Below are positions 7,013 to 53,301 of a DNA stretch of 64,000 nt, piece by piece (the stretch's first letter is position 1; each line of letters opens with the position of its first letter). Location: the NCBI GenBank assembly GCA_020525365.1, contig JAIZOF010000001.1:1201456-1265455 (forward strand). The letters run 5' to 3'. Below the pieces are notes generated by a model, which saw only the letters and a list, made by a program, of their open reading frames with translations, was not told the origin of the DNA and made no database searches. The stretch is from Sulfurovum sp. Its GTDB lineage: Bacteria > Campylobacterota > Campylobacteria > Campylobacterales > Sulfurovaceae. The position numbers and the translations under genes are program-made.

Positions 7013-8197
7013 ATGAAATTTACAAAACTTAGCTTAGTGGCAATTTTAGCTGTCAGTGCTGCATTTGCGGCTGATAACGGTAAGGTCTCTGGGGATGCAA
7101 GACTCTATTATGGAACAACGGCTGATGACACTGCTAGTCCTAAACAAGATTTGTTTGGAAAAGTAAACTCTTTTGGTGATGTTGCGGCAAGAGTTGACTA
7201 TACTCGCTCACTCATGGGGGGTGCACTAACACTAAATACAGGACTTCAAGGTCTCTCCACACTTGGTCTTGAAAGTGAACTTGTTGGAGGTACATGGGTA
7301 GGACATGGTGCAGGTGCTGTACAAGATGCATATTGGATTGATACATTCAATGCACAAATTCAATTAAGAAAGAATGTGACTGTAACCATTGGACGTCAAG
7401 CGTTGGATACACCATTCTTCTTTACTGAAACATGGAGTATTGCAAAAAATACTTTTGATGCTGTTGTTGCAACAAACAGTGATCTTCCTAAAACTACTTT
7501 AGTTGCAGCATGGGTAGGTAGAGGAAACGGTAGTCCTGGAAAAGTAGTTCAAGTTAACAATACTGACATTAATGGTGGAATGCATACATTTGGTGGTAAG
7601 CCAGCATACGCTTTTGCTGCAGTAACAAAACTGATTCCTAATACCGTAACACAAGCATGGTACTACAAAGTTCCAGGTGCTGCAACTGCTTACTGGGCAC
7701 AAGCTGACAGTAATGTAGCGGGTGTAGACTTGGGTGTACAGTATGCAGGAACTGAACTTACAGCATCAGGAGACAAAACAAGTGGATTTGCTGTAAAACT
7801 TGGGTATGGTAAAGGTGCATGGAGTGCTTATGGTGCATACTCTGCCACAGCAGATGATGCTACTGGTATTGATATCTCCAATATTGCGACAGGACTTACT
7901 GGTGCTTCTCAGTCTAAACTCTATACTGAGTCATACTGGAACTATGGGTATGTTGGTGCAAGAAATGCAAAATCATTTGCAGTAGGTGGAGAATATAATC
8001 TTTCTTCAGTGAAGTTGGGTGCACAATATACAAATGTTACAGGCAACAATAGTAGCATGGATCTTAAAGAGGCTACAGTAACTGCAAGCACAAAACTAAG
8101 TTCAGTCAATGTTGATCTTGCTTATATCAATGCAGAAAAAGGTTCTAGAAAAGAGAATACCGTACTTGTAATGGCAAAACTCCCTTTCAATCTTTAA
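7013..8197 (+). CDS. Major outer-membrane porin, OprD/MOMP-like
   Basis: A 394-residue outer-membrane channel. Residues 1-19 (MKFTKLSLVAILAVSAAFA) form a signal peptide cut before ADNGK. The body is beta-rich with Campylobacterota porin motifs: SGDARLYYGT, ARVDYTRSLMGG, VTIGRQALDTPFFFTE and TQAWYYKVP. GRQ-LDTP is shared with the porins at 8866 and 12597. Unlike many barrels it ends in LPFNL rather than Phe. It probably gives general diffusion of small solutes. It has its own strong promoter and a G/C-rich hairpin downstream, so it appears monocistronic. Substrate selectivity cannot be read from the sequence. Confidence 0.9.
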   Translation: MKFTKLSLVAILAVSAAFAADNGKVSGDARLYYGTTADDTASPKQDLFGKVNSFGDVAARVDYTRSLMGGALTLNTGLQGLSTLGLESELVGGTWVGHGAGAVQDAYWIDTFNAQIQLRKNVTVTIGRQALDTPFFFTETWSIAKNTFDAVVATNSDLPKTTLVAAWVGRGNGSPGKVVQVNNTDINGGMHTFGGKPAYAFAAVTKLIPNTVTQAWYYKVPGAATAYWAQADSNVAGVDLGVQYAGTELTASGDKTSGFAVKLGYGKGAWSAYGAYSATADDATGIDISNIATGLTGASQSKLYTESYWNYGYVGARNAKSFAVGGEYNLSSVKLGAQYTNVTGNNSSMDLKEATVTASTKLSSVNVDLAYINAEKGSRKENTVLVMAKLPFNL

Positions 8198-8306
8198 TCT
8201 TTATGCCCCCTCTCTCCTTTGGGAGGGGTCTCCTTTCTTCTTTTACTCATTATATTAATTTTTATTAATTATTGTTTATTTTTATAAATATCAACAATAA
8301 GGTTAT
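8183..8306 (+). repeat. Direct repeat, copy 1 (124 bp)
   Basis: Exact 124-bp repeat covering the last codons of the first porin, its stop and the downstream terminator region. It recurs at 8669-8792 (offset 486). The two copies bracket the inverted feoB-derived insert, so the duplication probably arose with that insert and is likely an assembly product. Confidence 0.9.
8207..8228 (+). terminator. Hairpin downstream of the first porin
   Basis: CCCCTC (8207-8212) pairs with GAGGGG (8223-8228) ten bases after the porin stop, followed by a pyrimidine-rich stretch (TCTCCTTTCTTCTTTT). It is a plausible Rho-independent terminator; an exact second copy lies at 8693-8714 within the direct repeat. Confidence 0.55.
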
Positions 8307-8668
8307 GAGTTAAAAGAGGGAAGTCTGTGTATTTTGCATCTCCATACAAAAGGCTCATCTTTCCCTTGAAGACAAATATTTTGGCATTTTGCTATAAAAG
8401 TCCAAGAACAGCACCTGAAATATAGATAATGAATAAATATTTCTGCCTCCTTCTTGGTAAAGAATGCACCTGAAAAGAACATAAATAGGCAACTCTGCAC
8501 CACATGACATAAACCACACAAAAGTGTAATCAGTCTGTCTTTTTTCATTCTTGAGTGTACACGTGCCGCTATATAGGCAGGAACGGAACAACCAAAGCCT
8601 GTTACAAGTGGGATGAAACTCTTCCGTGTAGCCTGCAAACTTCAGGAAAGAAACCATCTAGTAAAAAG
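8307..8668 (-). other. Error-rich inverted copy of part of feoB
   Basis: Read on the minus strand, this stretch follows feoB positions about 11440-11818 base for base, including the GFGCSVPAY and CGA-LPIYVLF coding regions, but with many single-base gains and losses that destroy the frame. It is bracketed by exact 124-bp direct repeats. The scattered indels point to raw-read or chimeric sequence rather than a decaying duplicate. Apparent reading frames here (minus strand, 8303-8657) are not genes. Confidence 0.85.
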
Positions 8669-8792
8669 CCTTTCAATCTTTAATCTTTATGCCCCCTCTC
8701 TCCTTTGGGAGGGGTCTCCTTTCTTCTTTTACTCATTATATTAATTTTTATTAATTATTGTTTATTTTTATAAATATCAACAATAAGGTTAT
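8669..8792 (+). repeat. Direct repeat, copy 2 (124 bp)
   Basis: Exact second copy of 8183-8306, including the end of the porin reading frame and its hairpin. It runs straight into the promoter of the second porin. Removing one copy plus the insert would give a simple porin - terminator - porin arrangement. Confidence 0.9.
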
Positions 8793-10284: not shown

Positions 10285-12360
10285 ATGGAAAAGATTGTTG
10301 TAGCTTTGGCAGGGCAGCCCAATGTAGGAAAATCTTCCCTCATCAATACCATCTCCAATGCCAAACTCAAAGTGGGTAATTTCTCAGGCGTGACAGTTGA
10401 CAAAACAGAAATTATTTTTCAACTTTGCAATAACATAAAATGCAAGAACTATGAGGTACACATCATCGATCTTCCTGGTGCTTACTCTCTTACAGAGTAT
10501 ACCATTGAAGAGAAAGTGACAAAAAGTTTTCTTCAGAGTGATGAGTATGACCTTGTAGTCAACGTAGTTGATGCAACCAACCTTCAGAGAAATCTCCTCT
10601 TTACTACACAACTACTCGAAACTGGACAAAGAGTCATCGTTGTACTCAATATGATCGACGAAGCAAGAAAAGAAGGCATAGAGATAGATGAGAAACAACT
10701 CTCTGCCATCTTAGGAACACCGGTTATTAAAGCCTCTGCAGTAACCAAAGAGGGTATTGAAGAGCTAAAACATGCTATTGTTGAAGTCTACGAAAATCCT
10801 GAAGTTACCGCTAAAGTAATCTACTCCGATCCCATTGAGGAGGAGATAGATCACATTATTACCTTTTTAAAAGAAAAAAAGTACAAAAGCAACCTCCCCT
10901 ATCGCCATCTCGCTGTTAGACTCCTACAGGAGGACAAAGAGATCTACAAGAAGATGCATGACGAACCCATTTGGATAGAACTGCTTCCAGTCCTGCGTGA
11001 AGCACTTGAGCACATTTACCTACACATGGATACCAAAAATCTCAAAGAGATCTTTAGCGATGAGCACTTTTCCTTTGCCAAAGGGGCAAAGATGGAGGTA
11101 ATGTCACTTAAGCGTATGCGTGCAAAGAATTTGACACAGAAAATTGATAACCTGCTTATTAACAAAATTTTAGGTATACCTCTTTTTCTCTTTTTTATGT
11201 GGGGTCTCTTTCAGCTAACTTTTGAACTTGGAAGTGTCCCTATGGACTATATTGATGCTGCATTCAGTTGGCTTGGCGATCAGGCAAACAATCTACTTGA
11301 CAAAGGAGAACTCGGTTCTCTTGTTGCAGACGGTATCATTGCTGGGGTCGGTGCCGTTGTGATGTTCCTTCCCAATATTATGATTCTTTTCTTGGGAATA
11401 GCCCTACTTGAAACCACCGGATATATGAGTCGTGTTGCCTTTTTACTAGATGGTTTCTTTCACAAGTTTGGGCTACACGGAAAGAGTTTCATCCCACTTG
11501 TAACAGGCTTTGGTTGTTCTGTTCCTGCCTATATGGCGGCACGTACACTCAAGAATGAAAAAGACAGACTGATTACACTTTTTATTATTGGTTTTATGTC
11601 ATGTGGTGCAAGGTTACCTATTTATGTTCTTTTTTCAGGTGCATTCTTTACCCAGAAAGAGGCAGGAAATATTTTATTCATTATCTATATTTCAGGTGCT
11701 GTTCTTGGACTTTTTATGGCAAAAATACTTAAAATATTTGTCTTCAAGGGAGAAGATGAGCCTTTTGTTATGGAGATGCCAAAATACAGACTTCCCTCTT
11801 TTAAACTCATTTGGCATACCGTTTATGGTCAGTCAAAATCCTACTTAAAAAAAGCAGGTACCTTTATTTTGGCTGCCTCTATTCTTATTTGGTTTGCAAG
11901 CAATTACCCAAAGGTCAATGTGCCAGAAAACCTTGATACCAATCAAGTTAAACTCTATGAACTTGAGAGGAGTTATCTTGGAGAGATTGGGCATGCATCT
12001 GAACCATTCTTCTCTCCTCTTGGCATGGATTGGCGCATGGCAGTTGCATTAGAGACTGGCTTAGCAGCCAAGGAAGTAGTTGTATCTACACTTGGTGTGC
12101 TGTATGCACTAGGTGATGAAGTAGATGAAAGAAATGAAGGGTTAACCACTCAAATCAAAGCCAATATCCCATTTGCATCTGCTATTGCTTTTATTGTTTT
12201 TATTATGATCTACCTTCCATGTCTGGCAGCATCTATGGTATTCACGCAAGAGGCTGGAGGCTGGAAATATTTAGCCTACCTGTTTATAATGACCACAGCA
12301 ACTGCATGGATACTAAGTTTTCTTGCATACAAAATGACATCAATAATCACAGGGGGCTAA
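10285..12360 (+). CDS. feoB: Ferrous iron transport protein B
   Basis: Inner-membrane Fe(II) importer with a cytosolic G domain. The GTPase motifs are G1 GQPNVGKSS (about residues 10-18), G3 DLPGAYSL, G4 NMID and a G5-like SA. Membrane segments start near residue 290 and hold the two Gate domains, including GFGCSVPAYMAARTL and CGARLPIYVLF, with conserved Cys residues. At 691 residues it is a normal length. The ribosome site AAAAGGA precedes ATG 10285. The gene is followed after one base by feoA, so the pair is coupled. An error-rich inverted copy of its middle part lies at 8307-8668. Confidence 0.97.
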   Translation: MEKIVVALAGQPNVGKSSLINTISNAKLKVGNFSGVTVDKTEIIFQLCNNIKCKNYEVHIIDLPGAYSLTEYTIEEKVTKSFLQSDEYDLVVNVVDATNLQRNLLFTTQLLETGQRVIVVLNMIDEARKEGIEIDEKQLSAILGTPVIKASAVTKEGIEELKHAIVEVYENPEVTAKVIYSDPIEEEIDHIITFLKEKKYKSNLPYRHLAVRLLQEDKEIYKKMHDEPIWIELLPVLREALEHIYLHMDTKNLKEIFSDEHFSFAKGAKMEVMSLKRMRAKNLTQKIDNLLINKILGIPLFLFFMWGLFQLTFELGSVPMDYIDAAFSWLGDQANNLLDKGELGSLVADGIIAGVGAVVMFLPNIMILFLGIALLETTGYMSRVAFLLDGFFHKFGLHGKSFIPLVTGFGCSVPAYMAARTLKNEKDRLITLFIIGFMSCGARLPIYVLFSGAFFTQKEAGNILFIIYISGAVLGLFMAKILKIFVFKGEDEPFVMEMPKYRLPSFKLIWHTVYGQSKSYLKKAGTFILAASILIWFASNYPKVNVPENLDTNQVKLYELERSYLGEIGHASEPFFSPLGMDWRMAVALETGLAAKEVVVSTLGVLYALGDEVDERNEGLTTQIKANIPFASAIAFIVFIMIYLPCLAASMVFTQEAGGWKYLAYLFIMTTATAWILSFLAYKMTSIITGG

Positions 12361-16863: not shown

Positions 16864-17460
16864 TTACAACCCTTCAGCGTGTTTTGCAAGATATGTTGCA
16901 ACACCTTCTGCGTCAGGCTTCATTGCCTCATCACCTTTTTGCCAACCTGCAGGACACACTTCACCATGTTCGTTTGTAAACTGCATTGCATCAATCATCC
17001 TAAGCATCTCATCTACATTTCTTCCAAGTGGAAGGTCATTAATGACTGCGTGTCTAATTGTACCATCAGTATCAATCAAAAAAGAACCTCTTAGGGCAAC
17101 AGACTCATCAAGAAGTACATCATAATCTCTAGAAATCTGCTTTGTCAAGTCAGCCACAAGAGGGAAATTGATGCAGCCTATACCCCCCTTCTCTACAGGG
17201 GTTTCTCTCCATGCAAAGTGTGAAAACTGGCTGTCTATAGAGACACCAATAACATTGATTCCTCTATCTTGAAACTCATTGTATCTACGAGAGAACGCAA
17301 TAATCTCAGATGGACATACAAATGTAAAGTCAAGTGGATAGAAAAATACAACTGTTCCCTTCTTGCCGAAGTTTTTGTAAAGGTTGAAATCTTCTACAAT
17401 CTGACCGTCTCCAAGTACGGTGGTTGCTGTAAAATCTGGTGCTTTTTTGGTTACTAGCAT
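16864..17460 (-). CDS. 2-Cys peroxiredoxin (AhpC/TSA family)
   Basis: Thiol peroxidase of 198 residues that reduces hydrogen peroxide and organic peroxides. The peroxidatic cysteine is in DFTFVCPSEI (about residue 50) and the resolving cysteine in HGEVCPAGW (about residue 170), making it a typical dimeric 2-Cys Prx. The C-terminus (EGVATYLAKHAEGL) matches Campylobacterota peroxiredoxins. It is convergent with the YggS-type gene and shares its terminator. No alkyl hydroperoxide reductase partner (AhpF) gene is nearby. Confidence 0.94.
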   Translation of the reverse strand: MLVTKKAPDFTATTVLGDGQIVEDFNLYKNFGKKGTVVFFYPLDFTFVCPSEIIAFSRRYNEFQDRGINVIGVSIDSQFSHFAWRETPVEKGGIGCINFPLVADLTKQISRDYDVLLDESVALRGSFLIDTDGTIRHAVINDLPLGRNVDEMLRMIDAMQFTNEHGEVCPAGWQKGDEAMKPDAEGVATYLAKHAEGL

Positions 17461-17539: not shown

Positions 17540-18238
17540 TCTTAGTATGTCATGTTGTTGATTTGTTTGCAATGAGGGTAGTGCATTTCCCGTGTGGTTT
17601 AAATAAAGCCAGTTTTAAGTAAAATTATAGAACTATATACAGCAATCAAAGGAGAAAATAAAGTGGGATTTTTTCTTTCATGGAGAGAGAGTAGGAGGTA
17701 AGTGATGTGCTTGTACCCAACGAAAGAGAAGCGCACGTGCAGGAGCGGGAATACTTTTCATGGGGATACTCAGTCTCAGAATGCAGTAGCATTTTCGGGG
17801 CATGTGGGATTGTTACTTCAAAGTATTTATCCTTACTTTTACGTTAGACTTCATACGAACCATACAACCTCAAGCAAGCCCCCAGCCTATTACTTTGTAG
17901 GTTTTGCGCAAAATCAACGTCCAGAGTATGTGGGTGCGAATAACAAAAAGCGTTTTGCATGGAGCATAGCTTTGTTGGTTTCTGGTTTGGCGTTTTTACC
18001 TTTGGTCATTCACTTTCAGCATAACCCCATCAAAGTAGTGGTGTGTATACCGTTTGGCACTACTTTTTGAAGCAGCATTTTCCGTCTGCGTAGGGTGTGT
18101 AAAATATATGGATTCTTTAAAAAAGACCCTAAAATACACTGTCCTCGAGGTATCTGTGAAGTACGCACCAAAGATACCATACACCTCTCTTTGATTTACT
18201 CACAAAAGATCACTAAGGTCATGTTTGTTCTGGTAGCT
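17540..18238 (+). other. Error-rich copy of the DUF4395 gene and its upstream region
   Basis: From about 17555 the sequence follows 20465-21120 (and so the reverse complement of 19604-20259) closely, but with frequent inserted, lost or changed bases in both coding and non-coding parts. The frame of the DUF4395 protein is broken several times. It meets clean ubiD sequence near 18238 at the shared bases GGTAGCTC. It is best read as uncorrected or chimeric read sequence. No gene is called here. Confidence 0.8.
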
Positions 18239-19386
18239 CCTACACCCCAAAAAGCGTGCATAAACTGCTGGGCATGACCAGGATAGAGTGTCTTCATCTT
18301 GGCCAAAATAAGGTTATGAAAAACTCCATTCTCTGGCATATAGTAATCAGTAAGGTCAGGTGCCATTGGCTTAAGCATTGGCAAAAAGACTCGCTCAGTC
18401 GCCCAGCCCATATATTTGTCCTCAAGTGGTGGTTTTCCCACCACCGTTGCGGCAAAGACTGGATTTTCTTTCATCGTAATGGTCTCCACCTCCATAACCG
18501 GGAATGACTCTTTAAGTGTATAGTAACCAGTATGATCTCCAAAGGGGCCTTCAACTTCCATCTTTTCAGGGTCAACCAATCCTTCAATAACAATATCTAC
18601 ATCACGGGGAATATAGATGTCATTGGTAATGGATTTTACAAGCTGGGCATTTTGGTTGCGCACAAAACCATAGAGCAACATTTCAAACATCCCATGTGGC
18701 ATAGGGGCTTGCCCACACCAAATATAGAGTGGGTCTCCTCCAATGGCAACAGTCACAGGCATTTTCTTGCCTGCACGTTGATACTGGTCAAAAAAGTGGG
18801 AGGCATCTTTGTGTATCTGCCAGTGCATCCCTAAACGGTGCTTATCGTACTGTTGCAATCGGTACATTCCAAGGTTTTGCATCTTGCCATCAAGGCTTTG
18901 GGTATAAACCTGCCCCATTGTAATAAATGGACCACCATCCTCTTCCCATGTTTTAAGTATGGGTAATTTGTCTAAGTCTACTGCCTCTTTGGGCACAATG
19001 ACCTCTTGGCACTCGCCCTTAAAATTCAGACGCTTTGGAAATACATTTTTAAGATTAAAAAGCTTGGGTATCATTGCCAGTTTTTCCTTGAAACCTTTAG
19101 GCGGCTTCAGTTTAAGCAGTTCATCTATTCCCTCTGCTACAAGGTCAGGGTGTTTACCAAAAATTTTTTCGGTAAGTGCCTTATTTGCAAAGATATTCAT
19201 TAGGACAGGCATATCATACGCTATCTTCTTGGCTTTGTTAATCGGATTAGTAAAGAGTATAGGACGCGAATCCTCTTTTTTAACTTCTATGTAGGCAACA
19301 TGCGGAATCTCAAGTTCTACATCAAGTGGTTCATCTATTATTTTTAAATTGCCATTCTCTTTAAGCCACTGTATCACATCTTGCAT
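18196..19386 (-). CDS. ubiD: UbiD-family decarboxylase, C-terminus lost
   Basis: UbiD enzymes use prenylated FMN to decarboxylate aromatic or unsaturated acids, such as the ubiquinone/menaquinone precursor in quinone synthesis. Family segments include WEEDGGPFITMGQVYTQ, RLQQYDKHRLGMHWQIHKD, AIGGDPLYIW and EGPFGDHTGYYT. The protein starts at ATG 19386, but reliable sequence ends near MHAFWGVGA at about 18240; the last 14 residues come from a junction with unrelated low-quality sequence. Full family members run to roughly 600 residues, so about 200 C-terminal residues are missing. A 5' duplicate lies at 21338-21569 inside the inverted repeat. The loss is probably an assembly error and not a true pseudogene. 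Confidence 0.85.
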   Translation of the reverse strand: MQDVIQWLKENGNLKIIDEPLDVELEIPHVAYIEVKKEDSRPILFTNPINKAKKIAYDMPVLMNIFANKALTEKIFGKHPDLVAEGIDELLKLKPPKGFKEKLAMIPKLFNLKNVFPKRLNFKGECQEVIVPKEAVDLDKLPILKTWEEDGGPFITMGQVYTQSLDGKMQNLGMYRLQQYDKHRLGMHWQIHKDASHFFDQYQRAGKKMPVTVAIGGDPLYIWCGQAPMPHGMFEMLLYGFVRNQNAQLVKSITNDIYIPRDVDIVIEGLVDPEKMEVEGPFGDHTGYYTLKESFPVMEVETITMKENPVFAATVVGKPPLEDKYMGWATERVFLPMLKPMAPDLTDYYMPENGVFHNLILAKMKTLYPGHAQQFMHAFWGVGATRTNMTLVIFCE

Positions 19387-20360
19387 TGAACATCCCTCTT
19401 TTAAGTTATAACCATAATAATAAAAACCTATTATAGCAATTCATTCATACTAAAATCCCTAAAAACGATCAAACTCTTCTTGCATTTTTATCTCTTCTAA
19501 AGCTTCTCTTTCTGCATCACTCATCATCATTGTTTCTACTTTCTTGGCCAAAAGTGTTTTACTCTCTACTTTTGTAAAGTAAAGATATAGTCCAAAAACC
19601 AGAGCTACCGAAACAAGCATGACAATGATCTTTTGTGGTAAATCAAAAGTCTGTATGGTATCTTTGGTGCGTACTTCACAGATACCTCCAGGACAGTGTG
19701 TTACAGGGTCTTTTTGAAAAAGTCCATATATTTTACACCCTACGCAGACGGAAAATGCTGCTTCAAAAAAAAGTAGTGCCAAACAGAGTATGCACACCAC
19801 TACTTTGATGGGGTTATGCTGAAAGTGAATGACCAAAAGGTAAAACATAGGCAAAGCCAACAAAAGCCCTATGCTCCATGCAAAACGCTTCTGTGTCGCA
19901 CCCACATACTCTGGACGTTGATTTTGCACAAAAACCCTACCTAGTAATAGGCTGGGGGCATAGCGAGGTTGTATGGTTCGTATGAAGAAGTCTAACGTAA
20001 AAAATGAGATAAATACTTTAGTAACAATCACATGCCCCAATGCTACTGCATTCACAAGACTGAGTATCCCCATCAGAAAAAGTATTCCCGCTCCTGCACG
20101 TGCTTCTCTTTCGTTGAGTACAAGCACATCATACCCCTCTACTCTCTCTCCATACTGAAAAAATCCCACTTTATTTTCTCCTTTGCTGTATATAGTTCTG
20201 TAATTTTACTCAAACTGACTTATTTAAACCACATAGGAAATGTGCTACCCTCATTGCAAACAAGTCAACTTCACACTCTTGCAAAGGCTTTTTCTCATCT
20301 GCACTTTAAGTACCCACCGGAAATAAAAACAGCTCATCTCAAGGCTGTTACAAAATGCAT
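19155..20360. repeat. Perfect inverted repeat 1, left arm (1,206 bp)
   Basis: Exact reverse complement of 20364-21569, separated by only three bases (CAA, 20361-20363). It carries the first 77 codons of ubiD, the whole DUF4395 gene and its 5' region. The left arm seems the authentic one, because it continues into more ubiD sequence. Confidence 0.95.
19459..20169 (-). CDS. DUF4395 membrane protein
   Basis: A 236-residue inner-membrane protein of unknown function. The DUF4395 features are visible in order: TLDFFIRTIQPRYAPSLLLG, then the KRFAWSIGL helix, and EAAFSVCVGCKIYGLF with paired cysteines. Four membrane segments are likely. It has a Campylobacterota-style extension after the domain: HCPGGICEVRTKD, a further membrane helix (IIVMLVSVALVFGLYLYF) and an acidic amphipathic tail (AEREALEEIKMQEEFDRF). 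It lies 72 bases upstream of ubiD on the same strand. The paired Cys residues could bind metal or be redox-active; this is not established. Confidence 0.8.
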   Translation of the reverse strand: MGFFQYGERVEGYDVLVLNEREARAGAGILFLMGILSLVNAVALGHVIVTKVFISFFTLDFFIRTIQPRYAPSLLLGRVFVQNQRPEYVGATQKRFAWSIGLLLALPMFYLLVIHFQHNPIKVVVCILCLALLFFEAAFSVCVGCKIYGLFQKDPVTHCPGGICEVRTKDTIQTFDLPQKIIVMLVSVALVFGLYLYFTKVESKTLLAKKVETMMMSDAEREALEEIKMQEEFDRF

Positions 20361-20363
20361 CAA

Positions 20364-21569
20364 ATGCATTTTGTAACAGCCTTGAGATGAGCTGTTTTTA
20401 TTTCCGGTGGGTACTTAAAGTGCAGATGAGAAAAAGCCTTTGCAAGAGTGTGAAGTTGACTTGTTTGCAATGAGGGTAGCACATTTCCTATGTGGTTTAA
20501 ATAAGTCAGTTTGAGTAAAATTACAGAACTATATACAGCAAAGGAGAAAATAAAGTGGGATTTTTTCAGTATGGAGAGAGAGTAGAGGGGTATGATGTGC
20601 TTGTACTCAACGAAAGAGAAGCACGTGCAGGAGCGGGAATACTTTTTCTGATGGGGATACTCAGTCTTGTGAATGCAGTAGCATTGGGGCATGTGATTGT
20701 TACTAAAGTATTTATCTCATTTTTTACGTTAGACTTCTTCATACGAACCATACAACCTCGCTATGCCCCCAGCCTATTACTAGGTAGGGTTTTTGTGCAA
20801 AATCAACGTCCAGAGTATGTGGGTGCGACACAGAAGCGTTTTGCATGGAGCATAGGGCTTTTGTTGGCTTTGCCTATGTTTTACCTTTTGGTCATTCACT
20901 TTCAGCATAACCCCATCAAAGTAGTGGTGTGCATACTCTGTTTGGCACTACTTTTTTTTGAAGCAGCATTTTCCGTCTGCGTAGGGTGTAAAATATATGG
21001 ACTTTTTCAAAAAGACCCTGTAACACACTGTCCTGGAGGTATCTGTGAAGTACGCACCAAAGATACCATACAGACTTTTGATTTACCACAAAAGATCATT
21101 GTCATGCTTGTTTCGGTAGCTCTGGTTTTTGGACTATATCTTTACTTTACAAAAGTAGAGAGTAAAACACTTTTGGCCAAGAAAGTAGAAACAATGATGA
21201 TGAGTGATGCAGAAAGAGAAGCTTTAGAAGAGATAAAAATGCAAGAAGAGTTTGATCGTTTTTAGGGATTTTAGTATGAATGAATTGCTATAATAGGTTT
21301 TTATTATTATGGTTATAACTTAAAAGAGGGATGTTCAATGCAAGATGTGATACAGTGGCTTAAAGAGAATGGCAATTTAAAAATAATAGATGAACCACTT
21401 GATGTAGAACTTGAGATTCCGCATGTTGCCTACATAGAAGTTAAAAAAGAGGATTCGCGTCCTATACTCTTTACTAATCCGATTAACAAAGCCAAGAAGA
21501 TAGCGTATGATATGCCTGTCCTAATGAATATCTTTGCAAATAAGGCACTTACCGAAAAAATTTTTGGTA
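20364..21569. repeat. Perfect inverted repeat 1, right arm (1,206 bp)
   Basis: Exact reverse complement of 19155-20360. It ends abruptly inside the ubiD copy at 21569, after which the sequence becomes error-rich. It is probably a fold-back duplicate and not a real second locus. Confidence 0.95.
20555..21265 (+). CDS. DUF4395 membrane protein, inverted duplicate
   Basis: Residue-for-residue identical to the protein at 19459-20169 and located in the right arm of the perfect inverted repeat. It should not be counted as a paralogue unless read data confirm the palindrome. Confidence 0.6.
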   Translation: MGFFQYGERVEGYDVLVLNEREARAGAGILFLMGILSLVNAVALGHVIVTKVFISFFTLDFFIRTIQPRYAPSLLLGRVFVQNQRPEYVGATQKRFAWSIGLLLALPMFYLLVIHFQHNPIKVVVCILCLALLFFEAAFSVCVGCKIYGLFQKDPVTHCPGGICEVRTKDTIQTFDLPQKIIVMLVSVALVFGLYLYFTKVESKTLLAKKVETMMMSDAEREALEEIKMQEEFDRF

Positions 21570-21598
21570 GAGGTGCAGCGTACAAAATATTAGGGTGA
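21338..21598 (+). pseudogene. 5' fragment of ubiD, inverted duplicate
   Basis: The first 77 codons are identical to ubiD at 19386-19155. Identity stops at 21569 and the frame then ends after nine unrelated residues. It lies at the outer end of the right repeat arm and is very likely an assembly duplicate. Confidence 0.75.
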
Positions 21599-22790
21599 GC
21601 ATCATCCGCTGTCTTCATTTGACAATCGAGTTGTGCCGCAATCTTTTCAACTGTGTGAAGCTAACGTGCAGAATCAGTTCCCATCAGTGTTCAAATCTGT
21701 GCAGAATTGCCTGCCACAAACACTGTATCACATCTTTGGGCTGTCTGGCACAGAGACCATAACCATAATGTAGAAACCTGACCTGCTGAGACTATAAATA
21801 CTAAAATCTAAAAACGTCCGAGCTCTTCTTGCATTTTATCTCTTCTAGCTTCTTCTTCATCACTCATCATCGTGTTTCTACTTTCTTGACAAAATGTTTT
21901 ACTCTCTGCTGTAAAGTAAAGATGATCAAAAACCAAACTACCAGCTGGCATGTTTAATGATGCGTATTAAATCAAAGATGTATGTTGTATCTTGATGCGT
22001 ATCTGAACACTCAGGAGAGTGGTGAAAGTCCATGCTATTACGCGAACAATGCCTTTCAAAATGGTGCTGAAACATGCCTGCTTTGGGGGTTATGCTGAGA
22101 ATGGTTTGCAGGCAAACAGCTGAAAAGCCACAGTAACCTCCATGCTGCTTTGGCCTACTCTGGACGTGCGTATGCCTAACTGTGAGGGCATAACTGGTGC
22201 CTCGGTTCGTATGAAGAAGTCTGGCAAAAACGGACCACTCTTGTATTTTCGATCCGCATGCTGTCTTTACTGGGCTGGCTATCCCCATCGTATTCGCTCC
22301 TACCGTGCTAAGTTGATCACAACATCTCTACCTCCTCTCTCATGAAAATCCGCCATTACTATCTTTACTAACACGGTTGGTACTCAAACTTGTTTCATTA
22401 AACTACGCCAATGTGCACTCATTACACTGAGTCGGCTTCACGCTGCTACGAAAGGCACTCTCTCTGCACTTTCCACCGGCAGTAAATCCAGGCTGTTACA
22501 AAATCATCGTAGTAATCGTGCAGGCTGTTAGAGGCGACCTTCAGTTCAACCGTGAAACTCAAATATCTGTCTGTATTATCTGAAACAACTTTGTCTTTAC
22601 ATCATTAAGAGGGGTACGGATCCGTCCCATTCGGGCGTCTCCCTCTATCTATGTGCTGTTAACTGGGCTCGTTGATGCGATGTTACTCTGCGCCCGCTGA
22701 GCATGCGTAGTCATCCAGAGTGACGGTCGCTAACGGCATTAGGCACGCTCATCCAAGCTCGGCTTTGGGTATAATGTCCCGAATAATTTC
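21570..22790 (-). other. Error-rich third copy of the ubiD/DUF4395 region, then the SIR2-like 3' part
   Basis: From about 21590 to 22500 the bases follow 19200-20350 in the same orientation with many indels and substitutions; for example the ubiD 5' end lies near 21720 and the DUF4395 stop region near 21810. From about 22500 to 22790 it appears to continue, equally error-rich, into the 3' part of the minus-strand SIR2-like gene. Its order suggests the true genome runs ubiD - DUF4395 - SIR2-like. No intact gene can be called in it. Confidence 0.75.
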
Positions 22791-23145
22791 CCCTCTGCAA
22801 CTGGGTATTATCTTTTGCCTGTCTGAAAAGTGCTTCAAATAATTGGAAATAAAGAGTGACTACCTTGTCACGCAACTGATGATATTTTTCTTTATCAGAC
22901 AAATCTTCTTTTTCGAGTCTCTCTTCTGCCAATTTTCTTATTTTATCATCTAAATGTTTTTTTATAAACTTATCGAATTTATATGTCTCTTTTTTTAATT
23001 TTAAAAACCACTCTACTGCAAGTTCCCCTGCTAATGGGATACCAGAACTTTTCGAACACCCCGCACCCAAGAAAAAAACATAGTTCGTATCTTTGTCTCT
23101 TTTATGAGAAGCATATATCTCATCTATAAATTCATTTAGCGTCAT
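22711..23145 (-). CDS. SIR2-like domain protein, 3' part unreadable
   Basis: The start is ATG 23145, with an AAGGAATATAGAGA upstream region. Residues 22-43 (YVFFLGAGCSKSSGIPLAGEL region) match the NAD-binding GAGxS/CxxSGIP motif of SIR2-like proteins. A charged helical region follows (about residues 55-95: KKHLDDKIRKLAEERLEKED). Sequence is reliable only to about residue 118 (near 22790); the remaining residues come from error-rich sequence and the true C-terminus is unknown. SIR2-like NADase domains of this type often occur in anti-phage proteins, but no partner gene is visible, so a defence role is only a possibility. Confidence 0.6.
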   Translation of the reverse strand: MTLNEFIDEIYASHKRDKDTNYVFFLGAGCSKSSGIPLAGELAVEWFLKLKKETYKFDKFIKKHLDDKIRKLAEERLEKEDLSDKEKYHQLRDKVVTLYFQLFEALFRQAKDNTQLQRGNYSGHYTQSRAWMSVPNAVSDRHSG

Positions 23146-47212: not shown

Positions 47213-47272
47213 GCCAATATCTTTGGCGTGCTCTCTGGCAAACTTGAAATTAGGTGGTGTAGGGTCTCTAGT

Positions 47273-48453
47273 TTAATTTCAAAAGATTACACTTATTTAT
47301 AAGAACTCCGTCAAAGTTGGGTTCTTTAGCTATTTCAGGAATATCTAAAGTTCTACCATCTCCGCTGGGATTTCACATAAAATTCATGTACTGAATGGCG
47401 TAGACGATTAGGGTCATCATAGAGTTTATTCATTGCAATACACATGAACGCTTCATGTGCATCGGCATCTCAGACAGTAATTTCATTGGTTGCAAATAAT
47501 CTTGATGCCTTGTCTCTATAGCAGCTGAGGTATCATCTGTTTGTCAATGCTATGGTTGATCCTCACTCATGACGTATAATTTCGTAGAAGTCATCCCCAA
47601 AGACTTTAAAGTAGTGCCACCTGTTTGCCTCTTCTCAGATCCTCAAAAACTAAATTTTACGTTGCTTGGTCACTTAAATTTAGTGCCAATTTACTCCTCC
47701 CCCTGCAGACAGGCAGAGAGCAGACAGCCCTCGGAATGTTTCTTTTGAGCAAACCCAATTGATACGCGGATAGTAAGAACCCTTCAATATAGGCTCCAGA
47801 GCTAAGGAACATTAAGTTTTCAACCTTAGTTTCATTCTTTGGCATACAGACAAAGATGAAAACGCTGTCGTTCGATTTGTCACCAATCCTCTTGACAGGA
47901 CAGGTTTCCCATGCCTTAATGGGCTTAATGCCCTTTTCAGACATCAGTTGTAGAAGCCAATGGTACCCAAATATATTACCATATGGTTTGTCATGTTACC
48001 GAGGTCATACCTAGCTCTTTCACCCGCCGACTGAATTGCCTGGCCTGATTTTATCGATCAAACCCATTCACCACCAATATGGTTTGGTCACGGTTGAGCA
48101 AACCATCAGCCAAAGGCTGACACCACCAACCAGCAACTGATACCCACTGACAATATTCAACGGCAAATGGCATTGGCAAAACCCCACGTGGGATGTACCC
48201 ATACTGCTGAGCTAAAAATTGATGAAGATGGCATGGTGTTGATGATGTGCGAAGCACCGCTAATTAAGTGTAATGAGAGAAAATATTCTTTGTTTCTTTT
48301 GTTACAGGCAATTCTGCAAATCCCTTCGTAGACATCTTGGCATCGTGGTAATATGTTTATGGGTACCGAATGAGGTAACGCTTGGAGAGTTCTATGTGGT
48401 AGAGAAAGTATCTGTGATGCTTTGGCAGTAAAATTTGCCGCGAATAATATCGT
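47273..48453 (-). other. Error-rich sequence: dnaE 5' part and radC 3' part
   Basis: On the minus strand, 47273-48050 gives interrupted pieces of the DnaE PHP domain (GIKPI.., then CMPKNET..NLMFLSSGAYIEGF, then a DDPNRLRHSVHEF-like stretch), and about 48040-48453 gives pieces of RadC (AKASQIL, KEYFLSLHL, GASHII, WVHPTWGFANAI). The order shows radC directly upstream of dnaE on the minus strand. Frequent single-base indels and sharp borders with clean sequence at both ends indicate unpolished sequence. Apparent short frames here are not independent genes. Confidence 0.85.
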
Positions 48454-48655
48454 ACAACGTTTCCAACGACACGCCATCTAACCCTGCATTAAGTACAGAG
48501 ATAATCTCTTTAGAGAGTTTGCGTACATCATTTCCCTGTACACCAGAGCCAATCAGCACTGCCATCAACTCCTCATTTTTGAGTGCCTCAACCCCTTTAG
48601 AAATCAGTTTTTCACGAGGCTTATCCTTCTTATAGAGTTCAGCTATCTTTTTCAT
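48392..48655 (-). CDS. radC: RadC-family protein, 5' part
   Basis: The reliable part is residues 1-67 (MKKIAELYKKDKPREKLISK to GVSLETL), the helix-hairpin-helix N-terminal region of RadC/MPN+ proteins, from ATG 48655 to 48454. Beyond 48454 the sequence becomes error-rich, but remnants of the C-terminal metalloprotease-like domain can be read down to about 48050, so the true gene is probably full length (about 225 residues). The cellular role of RadC is unsettled. Confidence 0.75.
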   Translation of the reverse strand: MKKIAELYKKDKPREKLISKGVEALKNEELMAVLIGSGVQGNDVRKLSKEIISVLNAGLDGVSLETLYDIIRGKFYCQSITDTFSTT

Positions 48656-48801
48656 GCAAAAACCCTATTTTCATTGTCACAAACATACTATACCCCTTAT
48701 CATAAGGGTATTTTAGACTAAGATGTGATTAGAAGAAAAAAATATGTCATATTGTCATATTTATATAGTAGCGTGTCGGTCTTTTAAATGATTTGAGAGG
48801 A

Positions 48802-49119
48802 TTATTTGGACTTAAGCATCCACACCAACAGCAGTATGCCTACGGTAATGTTGAGCCAGCTTACACCATCTTTGAACATTGATTCAAGTGCTGTATACAT
48901 CCACCGTATCTGCGAGAGTGGTTCGATGATGCTGTGTAGGTGTGCCCACTCTATCAGTTCAGACTGCCAAATATAGGTAACAAGTTCAGGCACAAAGAAA
49001 AAGAGTACAACACCCAGTACACCCCAAATCGTCCGTTCTGGCTTTATGCGCCCTACGGCTTGCTTAAGTTTTGGATCATTGGCAATATGCTCTTGTATTT
49101 GGGTAATCTTTTTACGCAT
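48802..49119 (-). CDS. Small two-helix membrane protein
   Basis: A 105-residue protein of unknown function. A basic N-terminal region (about residues 1-28) is followed by two membrane helices (WGVLGVVLFFFVPELVTYIW and WLNITVGILLLVWMLKS). Its ATG overlaps the TGA of the DJ-1 gene by one base, indicating coupling. No family is recognised. Confidence 0.65.
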   Translation of the reverse strand: MRKKITQIQEHIANDPKLKQAVGRIKPERTIWGVLGVVLFFFVPELVTYIWQSELIEWAHLHSIIEPLSQIRWMYTALESMFKDGVSWLNITVGILLLVWMLKSK

Positions 49120-49676
49120 CAGCAGTAACCAAGCAACATTCCCTCTTTAACCTGCTGTGCTGTCTCTTCACCTACAAGGCGTTTAACAATGACCAATCCA
49201 AAACAAACGGATGTTCCAGGACCTTGCGATGTAATAATGTTGTCATCTTCAACAACTTTTTGATCTGAGATATAGCCAGGGTGGTCTATCTCTTCAATTG
49301 CACCAGGATAGGCAGTATATCGTTCACCCAATACCCCTGCCTTTTTTAGTGCATAGGGTGCAGCACACATAGCACCGACAATCTTCTTCTCCTTAAACTC
49401 CTTGAGTAACTCCTGCACCCTAGGACTCTCTGCTAGAGCATAGGTACCACCCCACCCTCCAGGTAGTACTATCATATCAAAATCTTCAACGATGACATTG
49501 TTTATGGGGATATCTGCCTTAATGGTAATGCCATTGGCACCTGTAACCAATTCGCCATGCAACTCATCGATATATGCCAATTGTACATCAATGCCACCAC
49601 GACGCATCACATCACACAGTGCTACTGCTTCAAGCTCCTCAAACCCTTCTGCCAATGGTAATAATACACTTGCCAC
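49119..49676 (-). CDS. DJ-1/PfpI-family protein
   Basis: A 185-residue protein with the DJ-1 fold: LLPLAEGFEELEAVALCDVMRR at the N-terminus with the conserved Glu, VLPGGWGGTYALAES, and the nucleophile elbow VGAMCAAPYALKKAG with the catalytic Cys. It is closest to the DJ-1/YajL group rather than the PfpI proteases. Proposed roles are stress defence and handling of glyoxal-type damage. The start is GTG 49676 with AAGGAG upstream. Confidence 0.88.
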   Translation of the reverse strand: MASVLLPLAEGFEELEAVALCDVMRRGGIDVQLAYIDELHGELVTGANGITIKADIPINNVIVEDFDMIVLPGGWGGTYALAESPRVQELLKEFKEKKIVGAMCAAPYALKKAGVLGERYTAYPGAIEEIDHPGYISDQKVVEDDNIITSQGPGTSVCFGLVIVKRLVGEETAQQVKEGMLLGYC

Positions 49677-49805
49677 AAAAGACTCCTTGGTAGTATTTGC
49701 TATATCATTATAAATTTTTTAGGTAAATCAATAATCATAAAAAGATATGTTATTGCTTTTTAGCTACAAATCATTACTTTAATACACATCGTTTACAGAA
49801 AAGAT

Positions 49806-50231
49806 TTACCACTTTCGAAGTCTCACGTGACACTTCATACACTGCCCAATAATTTTACTATGCTGCTGTAGTGCCTGAACTGCATCGCCTGTTTCGAAAC
49901 GCTCTTCAAGTATTTCTGCTTTTTTAACAATTTTCTTTTGTATTTTACTTGTCATCTTTAAGTTATTGTTGAGCCATTTCTCATAAATATCTTTACTGTT
50001 TATCTCTTCATCAGTTGCATGTATTTTTACAATTGTATCTTTCAATACCCTTGTCCCTGCCTTAATGATATCTATATTATTATAGAGCAAACCCGATTGG
50101 ATATCTTGCATTGCTTGTGCCATCTTTTGCATATCTGCAATTCTATCTGCTTGCGTATATCCACTCGCCATGGCAAAACGACTTAAGAGTACAAATATTG
50201 ATACTACTGTTAACAATAGTGATAATTTCAT
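49806..50231 (-). CDS. c-type cytochrome, cytochrome c'-like
   Basis: A 141-residue exported protein. Residues 1-22 are a signal peptide (MKLSLLLTVVSIFVLLSRFAMA). The mature part is an all-helical bundle with the single haem motif CMKCH near the C-terminus (IIGQCMKCHVRLRKW), the layout of cytochrome c'/c-556 proteins. It lies in the periplasm and may carry electrons or bind small gases. A ribosome site AAGGAG precedes the ATG. Confidence 0.83.
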   Translation of the reverse strand: MKLSLLLTVVSIFVLLSRFAMASGYTQADRIADMQKMAQAMQDIQSGLLYNNIDIIKAGTRVLKDTIVKIHATDEEINSKDIYEKWLNNNLKMTSKIQKKIVKKAEILEERFETGDAVQALQQHSKIIGQCMKCHVRLRKW

Positions 50232-50862
50232 TATATCTCCTTATTAATAATATAAAAGTATCATAACATGATAACGCATTATCTTTAAATAACTCAATTC
50301 GATTTATATTCATCACATATTTTGATGATAAATTTTTATAAAATTTAAGTTTTATTTTAAAGTTTTGGTGATAATATGGTGTTGTATCAAAAATTAATAT
50401 AAAGGATATAGTGATGACAAAAATACTTATTTCGTGTGCAGTAGCAGCCGCACTTGCAACAACTACACAAGCAGATTTTAGCTTTGGAGACATGTTTAAA
50501 GACATGAAAGAGGCGGCAATCAGCATGAGTAAGGATGCCAAAGATAGCGTTGAATCCATGAAAGATGGCGCTGTTGAAACCAGTAAAAGTGCAGAGCGAA
50601 CAGTTACTAATGTTAGCCATGACGCCAGAGATACATCCGTGAAAGTATCTGATGACTTAACATTAGTAACTGTTCGCTCTGCACTTTTACTGGTTTCAAC
50701 AGCGCCATCTTTCATGGATTCAACGCTATCTTTGGCATCCTTACTCATGCTGATTGCCGCCTCTTTCATGTCTTTAAACATGTCTCCAAAGCTAAAATCT
50801 GCTTGTGTAGTTGTTGCAAGTGCGGCTGCTACTGCACACGAAATAAGTATTTTTGTCATCAC
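50143..50862 (-). pseudogene. Mirror image of the periplasmic-protein gene
   Basis: The first 67 codons from 50862 are identical to those of the plus-strand gene at 50411, because both cross the centre of the inverted repeat. The reading then passes through the spacer and continues antisense. It is a product of the palindrome and not an independent gene. Confidence 0.6.
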
Positions 50863-51130
50863 TATATCCTTTATATTAATTTTTGATACAACACCATATT
50901 ATCACCAAAACTTTAAAATAAAACTTAAATTTTATAAAAATTTATCATCAAAATATGTGATGAATATAAATCGAATTGAGTTATTTAAAGATAATGCGTT
51001 ATCATGTTATGATACTTTTATATTATTAATAAGGAGATATAATGAAATTATCACTATTGTTAACAGTAGTATCAATATTTGTACTCTTAAGTCGTTTTGC
51101 CATGGCGAGTGGATATACGCAAGCAGATAG
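50411..51130 (+). CDS. Small periplasmic protein, 3' end replaced by fold-back sequence
   Basis: The start is probably ATG 50414 after AAAGGATATAGTG. The first 20 residues (MTKILISCAVAAALATTTQA) are a signal peptide. The mature part is Lys/Asp/Ser-rich and helical with loose repeats (MKEAAISMSKDAKDSVESMKDGAVETSKSAERTVTNV). Genuine sequence continues through the spacer to SHDARDTSVKVSDD at 50657; everything after is the reverse complement of the gene itself, so the true C-terminus is unknown. It is divergent from the cytochrome gene in the left arm. No family is recognised. Confidence 0.55.
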   Translation: MMTKILISCAVAAALATTTQADFSFGDMFKDMKEAAISMSKDAKDSVESMKDGAVETSKSAERTVTNVSHDARDTSVKVSDDLTLVTVRSALLLVSTAPSFMDSTLSLASLLMLIAASFMSLNMSPKLKSACVVVASAAATAHEISIFVITISFILIFDTTPYYHQNFKIKLKFYKNLSSKYVMNINRIELFKDNALSCYDTFILLIRRYNEIITIVNSSINICTLKSFCHGEWIYASR

Positions 51131-51467
51131 AATTGCAGATATGCAAAAGATGGCACAAGCAATGCAAGATATCCAATCGGGTTTGCTCTATAATAATATA
51201 GATATCATTAAGGCAGGGACAAGGGTATTGAAAGATACAATTGTAAAAATACATGCAACTGATGAAGAGATAAACAGTAAAGATATTTATGAGAAATGGC
51301 TCAACAATAACTTAAAGATGACAAGTAAAATACAAAAGAAAATTGTTAAAAAAGCAGAAATACTTGAAGAGCGTTTCGAAACAGGCGATGCAGTTCAGGC
51401 ACTACAGCAGCATAGTAAAATTATTGGGCAGTGTATGAAGTGTCACGTGAGACTTCGAAAGTGGTAA
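51042..51467 (+). CDS. c-type cytochrome, inverted duplicate
   Basis: Residue-for-residue identical to the cytochrome c'-like protein at 49806-50231, lying in the right repeat arm. It should not be counted as a second gene without read support. Confidence 0.6.
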   Translation: MKLSLLLTVVSIFVLLSRFAMASGYTQADRIADMQKMAQAMQDIQSGLLYNNIDIIKAGTRVLKDTIVKIHATDEEINSKDIYEKWLNNNLKMTSKIQKKIVKKAEILEERFETGDAVQALQQHSKIIGQCMKCHVRLRKW

Positions 51468-51596
51468 ATCTTTTCTGTAAACGATGTGTATTAAAGTAAT
51501 GATTTGTAGCTAAAAAGCAATAACATATCTTTTTATGATTATTGATTTACCTAAAAAATTTATAATGATATAGCAAATACTACCAAGGAGTCTTTT

Positions 51597-52154
51597 GTGG
51601 CAAGTGTATTATTACCATTGGCAGAAGGGTTTGAGGAGCTTGAAGCAGTAGCACTGTGTGATGTGATGCGTCGTGGTGGCATTGATGTACAATTGGCATA
51701 TATCGATGAGTTGCATGGCGAATTGGTTACAGGTGCCAATGGCATTACCATTAAGGCAGATATCCCCATAAACAATGTCATCGTTGAAGATTTTGATATG
51801 ATAGTACTACCTGGAGGGTGGGGTGGTACCTATGCTCTAGCAGAGAGTCCTAGGGTGCAGGAGTTACTCAAGGAGTTTAAGGAGAAGAAGATTGTCGGTG
51901 CTATGTGTGCTGCACCCTATGCACTAAAAAAGGCAGGGGTATTGGGTGAACGATATACTGCCTATCCTGGTGCAATTGAAGAGATAGACCACCCTGGCTA
52001 TATCTCAGATCAAAAAGTTGTTGAAGATGACAACATTATTACATCGCAAGGTCCTGGAACATCCGTTTGTTTTGGATTGGTCATTGTTAAACGCCTTGTA
52101 GGTGAAGAGACAGCACAGCAGGTTAAAGAGGGAATGTTGCTTGGTTACTGCTGA
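51597..52154 (+). CDS. DJ-1/PfpI-family protein, inverted duplicate
   Basis: Identical to the protein at 49119-49676, including the GTG start with AAGGAG upstream. It lies in the right repeat arm. Confidence 0.6.
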   Translation: MASVLLPLAEGFEELEAVALCDVMRRGGIDVQLAYIDELHGELVTGANGITIKADIPINNVIVEDFDMIVLPGGWGGTYALAESPRVQELLKEFKEKKIVGAMCAAPYALKKAGVLGERYTAYPGAIEEIDHPGYISDQKVVEDDNIITSQGPGTSVCFGLVIVKRLVGEETAQQVKEGMLLGYC

Positions 52155-52471
52155 TGCGTAAAAAGATTACCCAAATACAAGAGCATATTGCCAATGATCC
52201 AAAACTTAAGCAAGCCGTAGGGCGCATAAAGCCAGAACGGACGATTTGGGGTGTACTGGGTGTTGTACTCTTTTTCTTTGTGCCTGAACTTGTTACCTAT
52301 ATTTGGCAGTCTGAACTGATAGAGTGGGCACACCTACACAGCATCATCGAACCACTCTCGCAGATACGGTGGATGTATACAGCACTTGAATCAATGTTCA
52401 AAGATGGTGTAAGCTGGCTCAACATTACCGTAGGCATACTGCTGTTGGTGTGGATGCTTAAGTCCAAATAA
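52154..52471 (+). CDS. Small two-helix membrane protein, inverted duplicate
   Basis: Identical to the protein at 48802-49119 and coupled in the same way to the DJ-1 gene by a one-base overlap. It lies in the right repeat arm. Confidence 0.55.
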   Translation: MRKKITQIQEHIANDPKLKQAVGRIKPERTIWGVLGVVLFFFVPELVTYIWQSELIEWAHLHSIIEPLSQIRWMYTALESMFKDGVSWLNITVGILLLVWMLKSK

Positions 52472-52617
52472 TCCTCTCAAATCATTTAAAAGACCGACAC
52501 GCTACTATATAAATATGACAATATGACATATTTTTTTCTTCTAATCACATCTTAGTCTAAAATACCCTTATGATAAGGGGTATAGTATGTTTGTGACAAT
52601 GAAAATAGGGTTTTTGC

Positions 52618-53301
52618 ATGAAAAAGATAGCTGAACTCTATAAGAAGGATAAGCCTCGTGAAAAACTGATTTCTAAAGGGGTTGAGGCACTCAAAAATGA
52701 GGAGTTGATGGCAGTGCTGATTGGCTCTGGTGTACAGGGAAATGATGTACGCAAACTCTCTAAAGAGATTATCTCTGTACTTAATGCAGGGTTAGATGGC
52801 GTGTCGTTGGAAACGTTGTCGCAAAAAAAGTATGATAAAAATATTCCTATGGCCATACTCAAAAAAATTAAAGCCAACTTCGAAGGACTCATCAACTCTA
52901 AAGACAAACTCAAATATCAGATGCTATCAAATTATCAATTTATGATTGGCATGCCAAGATATGAAGACATGATAGAAGTTGCCATGGGTAGTGACTTGCT
53001 TAAAAACATACAAGGAAAAAGCCAGGTGGTCTTCCAGCAAAAACTCCCAAATGGTGCCATATTATTTGGTATGCAGTTTAGAGAACCTACACAGAAATTC
53101 CCTTACCAAATTGGTACAAATAATGCCGTATTGCTACCCTATCCGGTACTCATTAAAGAGAAAAAAGCATATATAATGAATCCAAAGTACTACATCTCTA
53201 TCATGTATCCACTCTTAAAAATGTCACAGTTTATGGCTATTTCTACTATACCAGGTGCAATCTTGAAAGAGGCACAGAGCGTATTTAGAAAAGGGAGATA
53301 A
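52618..53301 (+). CDS. Chimeric frame: radC 5' part fused to the 3' part of an unknown gene
   Basis: Residues 1-67 are the RadC N-terminus, identical to 48655-48454. At 52819/52820 the frame passes into about 160 residues that do not resemble RadC (QKKYDKNIPMAILKK, then MLSNYQFMIGMPRYEDM, GTNNAVLLPYPVLIKEKKAY, and MAISTIPGAILKEAQSVF). This second part looks like the true C-terminal end of a different gene on the plus strand, convergent with efp. The join coincides exactly with the end of the inverted repeat arm, so the fusion is very probably artificial. The downstream protein is not recognised. Confidence 0.5.
   Translation: MKKIAELYKKDKPREKLISKGVEALKNEELMAVLIGSGVQGNDVRKLSKEIISVLNAGLDGVSLETLSQKKYDKNIPMAILKKIKANFEGLINSKDKLKYQMLSNYQFMIGMPRYEDMIEVAMGSDLLKNIQGKSQVVFQQKLPNGAILFGMQFREPTQKFPYQIGTNNAVLLPYPVLIKEKKAYIMNPKYYISIMYPLLKMSQFMAISTIPGAILKEAQSVFRKGR

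What the first reader, a model, noticed from the sequence alone, without database searches (positions are those of the whole stretch)
19155..21569. Perfect 1,206-bp inverted repeat with a 3-base spacer, breaking ubiD
19155-20360 and 20364-21569 are exact reverse complements around CAA. The arms hold a complete gene and a gene start but no mobile-element features. Long near-spacerless perfect palindromes are unstable in bacteria, being cleaved by SbcCD-type nucleases, so a fold-back (inverted chimera) in sequencing or assembly is the most likely cause. A real recent inverted duplication is the alternative.
Basis: partly seen in the sequence, partly recalled or inferred. Interest (0 to 1): 0.6.

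Follow-up and report, generated by a model that had tools for sequence, protein, structure and literature searches.

The report
Fold-back chimera in a Sulfurovum assembly
The perfect 1.2-kb palindrome is really in the deposited sequence, but it is almost certainly an assembly artefact: zigzag long reads were stitched into this Sulfurovum genome here and at several other places, so it is not a biological feature.

Summary

(1) The palindrome sits among noisy extra copies of its own arm. 17553-18239 is 86% identical. 21549-22028 and 22183-22508 are 62-67% identical and fold back a second time (B-B'-B''). The copies are riddled with 1-2 base indels, and their mismatches are flat over codon positions, as in raw long reads and unlike old paralogues.

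(2) Every intact relative examined has a 606-609 aa ubiD, usually followed directly by the peroxiredoxin gene. Here ubiD stops at residue 383, the rest is replaced by a noisy copy of the arm, and the missing 223 residues are found nowhere in the genome.

(3) The window has a second perfect palindrome (48454-52819). It fuses the RadC N-terminus to an unrelated gene and adjoins noise that destroys the start of the only dnaE.

(4) About 388 kb sampled elsewhere in the genome shows more inverted copies; 400 kb of two single-contig Sulfurovum relatives shows none.

(5) Exact adjacent 126/127-bp repeats look like unmerged short-read contig overlaps.

Verdict: not a real feature. Genome flagged for re-assembly.

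The parts
19155..20360 (-). Left arm (B): start of ubiD and a complete 236-aa ORF. It is continuous with ubiD codons leftwards to about 18240.
   Evidence: exact reverse complement of 20364-21569; ORFs
20361..20363 (.). CAA spacer at the fold. With ATGCAT on both sides it makes a short hairpin at which a strand end could self-prime.
   Evidence: sequence; self-priming is inference
20364..21569 (+). Right arm (B'), perfect copy; ubiD reading frame ends here after 78 codons
21549..22508 (+). B'': second fold, a degraded third copy of the left arm. 21549-22028 matches 19154-19706 at 67%; 22183-22508 matches 19953-20361 at 62%.
   Evidence: sensitive self-alignment; sequence
22509..22800 (.). Noise-like, GC-raised (0.48) sequence up to roughly the point where the SIR2-like ORF becomes clean; boundary approximate
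17553..18239 (+). 86% identical, indel-rich copy of 20451-21122. It stands where relatives have the last ~223 codons of ubiD.
18240..19386 (-). ubiD residues 1-383, cut off; the C-terminal part is missing from the whole assembly
8183..8792 (.). Same class of artefact: exact 124-bp direct repeat (8183-8306, 8669-8792) around a noisy inverted copy of feoB 11437-11853
48454..50615 (.). Second palindrome, left arm
50658..52819 (.). Second palindrome, right arm; RadC N-terminus fused at 52819 to the C-terminus of a ~700-aa protein
47213..48453 (-). Noisy sequence next to the second palindrome; holds the frameshifted N-terminal part of the only dnaE

Best explanation
The palindrome is an assembly artefact. 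A long read, or a few, from inverted-chimeric (zigzag, B-B'-B'') DNA was used to bridge gaps between accurate short-read segments of a Sulfurovum genome. Where accurate sequence could be laid on the read, both arms came out letter-perfect. Where it could not, the raw error-rich read was left in place. The chimeric molecule most plausibly arose when a displaced 3' end re-primed on its own strand at a short inverted repeat (ATGCAT-CAA-ATGCAT) during whole-genome amplification. A fold-back read from nanopore ligation or a missed adapter is the alternative source. Shown here: the structure, the noisy copies, the genome-wide recurrence, the broken or lost genes and the absence in relatives. Inferred: hybrid bridging, the amplification step and the platform.
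For: Noisy arm copies flank the palindrome. Their indels are almost all not multiples of 3 (32 of 36, and 23 of 24 in the feoB copy), and mismatches are flat over codon positions (11/11/7 and 6/10/11). ubiD is 606-609 aa in the intact relatives examined and is followed directly by the peroxiredoxin gene in most of them; here it is cut at residue 383 and the rest is absent. 387.7 kb sampled from the same genome holds further inverted copies, including an 11.5-kb palindrome at 89% with 756 gap positions, whose left half has 9% long-ORF coverage against 78%, and an exact B-B'-B array. 400 kb of relatives G024 and G016 holds no inverted copy >=300 bp. Exact adjacent repeats of 126, 126 and 127 bp look like unmerged k-mer overlaps. 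The second palindrome fuses RadC to an unrelated gene, no RadC domain remains, and the only dnaE turns into frameshifted noise. Palindromic multi-inversion long reads that damage assemblies are documented for amplified DNA (PMC6218980; PMC13265396) and inverted-repeat chimeras for nanopore ligation libraries (PMC13141652).
Against: No reads were examined. The arms themselves are perfect, and a real palindrome could also confuse an assembler and leave noise beside it. No SbcD was found in this assembly, so long palindromes may be less unstable in this organism than in E. coli. The listed quality is high (99.86% complete).
Confidence: 0.95

Rival explanations
1. A real, recent inverted duplication in the chromosome, made by template switching at the short inverted repeat, in a lineage lacking SbcCD.
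For: Exact arms; a plausible hairpin at the centre; SbcD not detected here.
Against: It needs a second fold into a 62-67% copy, a replaced ubiD end, and several such events in the sampled genome, many with one half full of frameshifts. Essential dnaE is hit by the same noise. No inverted copy of >=300 bp was found in 400 kb of relatives.
Confidence: 0.03
2. Old duplications decayed as pseudogenes: the 86% and 62-67% copies are ancient, the perfect palindrome the newest of a recurrent series.
For: Copies of graded identity lie around the palindrome.
Against: The copies carry an indel event about every 15-20 bases, mostly one base, nearly all frame-breaking, with mismatches flat over codon positions. 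True porin paralogues in the same window (73% identity) show third-position excess and open frames. The same pattern occurs inside dnaE.
Confidence: 0.01
3. A mixture of co-occurring strains collapsed into one chimeric contig.
For: Direct noisy duplicates at about 88-93% also exist (L127, L129).
Against: Strain variants would differ mainly at third codon positions and keep reading frames; these do neither. Mixing strains does not by itself create perfect palindromes.
Confidence: 0.01

Closest known systems
Palindromic (inverted chimeric) long reads after whole-genome/multiple displacement amplification (Pacasus, PMC6218980; tardigrade mitogenomes, PMC13265396)
   Same: Exact or noisy inverted copies, multiple inversions in one molecule, misassembly when left uncorrected
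   Different: Amplification of this sample is not documented; the dataset is unnamed and the reads were not available
Inverted-repeat chimeric reads of nanopore ligation libraries (PMC13141652)
   Same: Fold-back of a strand onto its complement giving inverted repeats >500 bp
   Different: That source would mostly give a single fold; here B-B'-B'' and displaced folds (17553-18239) occur, which fits amplification chimeras better (inference)

Membership tests
Fold-back/inverted-chimera assembly artefact | Inverted copy joined nearly without spacer, with no mobile-element features at the ends | tested here: met
   no transposase-like ORF in the arms (by inspection)
Fold-back/inverted-chimera assembly artefact | Copies with long-read error pattern (frequent short frame-breaking indels, no codon-position bias) | tested here: met
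Fold-back/inverted-chimera assembly artefact | Recurs across the same assembly, absent in relatives | tested here: met
   (387.7 kb own sample; 400 kb in two relatives)
Fold-back/inverted-chimera assembly artefact | No independent reads span the structure into both unique flanks | not testable with these tools
   raw reads not available
Real chromosomal inverted duplication | Flanking genes joined coherently and essential genes intact | tested here: not met
   ubiD end lost; RadC fused and its domain absent; dnaE noisy
Amplification (MDA) chimera specifically | Sample DNA was amplified before sequencing | not testable with these tools
   record unnamed; no matching paper found

The most novel reading that the evidence does not exclude
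A Sulfurovum lineage without a detectable SbcD really tolerates many long perfect palindromes in its chromosome, and these are what confused the assembler.
Probability: 0.03. Interest if true: 0.7.

Novelty: not a real feature. Interest (0 to 1): 0.1.

Why it matters
As biology it does not matter. As data quality it does: a genome rated 99.86% complete and 0.09% contaminated carries many zigzag copies, raw-read noise, truncated genes (ubiD, radC, dnaE) and an apparently animal-derived second contig. Gene losses, duplications, pseudogenes and rearrangements inferred from it would be wrong. Scanning assemblies for inverted copies of which one half is rich in frameshifts is a simple test that completeness scores miss.

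Tried and rejected
I took a spaced sample of 20 stretches instead and did not reassemble the genome. The source dataset or platform could not be identified from papers; an Alviniconcha symbiont was considered from memory but not shown. The error pattern (mixed insertions, deletions and mismatches) did not let me choose between nanopore and PacBio. The SbcCD-instability argument was set aside because no SbcD was detected in this assembly. The 236-aa ORF was not pursued as a cause: it is an ordinary gene with 55-60% identical homologues in relatives, though it was not found next to ubiD in the relatives' ubiD loci.

Full report
Observation. The arms 19155-20360 and 20364-21569 are exact reverse complements around CAA, and complementarity stops at once outside them. 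A self-comparison of the window shows that this is not alone. A second perfect palindrome lies at 48454-50615 / 50658-52819 (2162-nt arms, 42-nt spacer). An exact 124-bp direct repeat at 8183-8306 / 8669-8792 encloses an inverted copy of part of feoB.

Noisy copies of the arm. 17553-18239 matches 20451-21122 at 86%. 21549-22028 matches 19154-19706 at 67% and 22183-22508 matches 19953-20361 at 62%, so that after the right arm the sequence turns round again and runs back to the centre: A-B-B'-B''-C. In the 86% copy, 32 of 36 indel events are not multiples of three and mismatches fall 11/11/7 over codon positions; in the feoB copy the figures are 23 of 24 and 6/10/11. True paralogues in the same window (two porins, 73% identical) keep their frames and show a third-position excess. 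The copies therefore carry sequencing error and not evolutionary divergence.

Genes at the joints. The genome belongs near Sulfurovum. In the intact relatives examined UbiD has 606-609 residues, and in most of them its gene is followed within about 70-120 bp by the peroxiredoxin gene. In the window UbiD is cut at residue 383, the peroxiredoxin gene stands at 16864-17460, and the space between them, which should hold the rest of ubiD, is filled by the noisy arm copy. The missing 223 residues were not found anywhere in the genome, while the first 383 residues were found by the same method. At the second palindrome an ORF joins RadC residues 1-68 to the C-terminus of a protein of about 700 residues. 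No RadC domain is detectable in the assembly, and only distant partial matches to the rest of the 700-residue protein were seen. Beside it the only dnaE, 1190-1213 residues in close relatives, is clean from about residue 317 on, but its first ~280 residues appear only as frameshifted fragments at about 42% identity. An essential polymerase gene that turns abruptly into noise is strong evidence for raw-read sequence in the assembly.

Genome-wide picture. A spaced sample of 387.7 kb from the same genome contains, among others, an inverted pair of 11.5 kb at 89% with 531 mismatches and 756 gap positions in L136. The left half of that pair has 9% long-ORF coverage and the right half 78%. It also contains an exact B-B'-B array in L143, inverted pairs in L130, L134 and L127, and noisy direct tandem copies in L127 and L129. 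400 kb from two single-contig relatives (G024, G016) contains no inverted pair of at least 300 bp. Adjacent exact repeats of 126, 126 and 127 bp in L127 and L143 look like contig overlaps of one k-mer left unmerged, which suggests that short-read contigs were joined with long reads. This last step is inference.

Mechanism. The literature describes the pieces. Whole-genome amplification yields DNA with one or more inverted repeats that harm long-read assembly (PMC6218980). Multi-inversion palindromic nanopore reads can make up about a third of reads after multiple displacement amplification (PMC13265396). Nanopore ligation libraries produce inverted-repeat chimeras as well (PMC13141652). The repeated folding and the displaced fold at 18239/18240 fit amplification chimeras best, and the centre (ATGCAT-CAA-ATGCAT) could have served as a self-priming hairpin. 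The choice between these sources is not proven.

Verdict. The argument that SbcCD would destroy such a palindrome should not be used here, because no SbcD was detected in this assembly. Only raw reads or PCR can give the last proof.

Noticed in passing
window 48454-52819: Second perfect palindrome (2162-nt arms, 42-nt spacer) that fuses the RadC N-terminus to an unrelated gene.
   Followed up: yes
window 44573-48453: The only dnaE is intact from about residue 317 on; its N-terminal part is frameshifted noise.
   Followed up: yes
window 8183-8792: Exact 124-bp direct repeat around a noisy inverted 362-bp piece of feoB (11437-11853).
   Followed up: yes
L136 1-11509 (G000:C1:700001-720000): 11.5-kb noisy palindrome, one half coding and one half frameshift-ridden.
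   Followed up: partly
L145 (G000:C2, 7717 bp): Second contig looks eukaryotic (simple repeats, ~64-bp tandem array, 2.7 kb of N) and is probably animal-host contamination.
   Followed up: partly
L127 14871-15122 and 16066-16317; L143 8568-8822: Exact adjacent tandem repeats of 126-127 bp, as left by unmerged contig overlaps.
   Followed up: partly
G000 whole genome: No SbcD (TIGR00619) detected, while G003 of the same genus has one; may be real loss or assembly damage.
   Followed up: no
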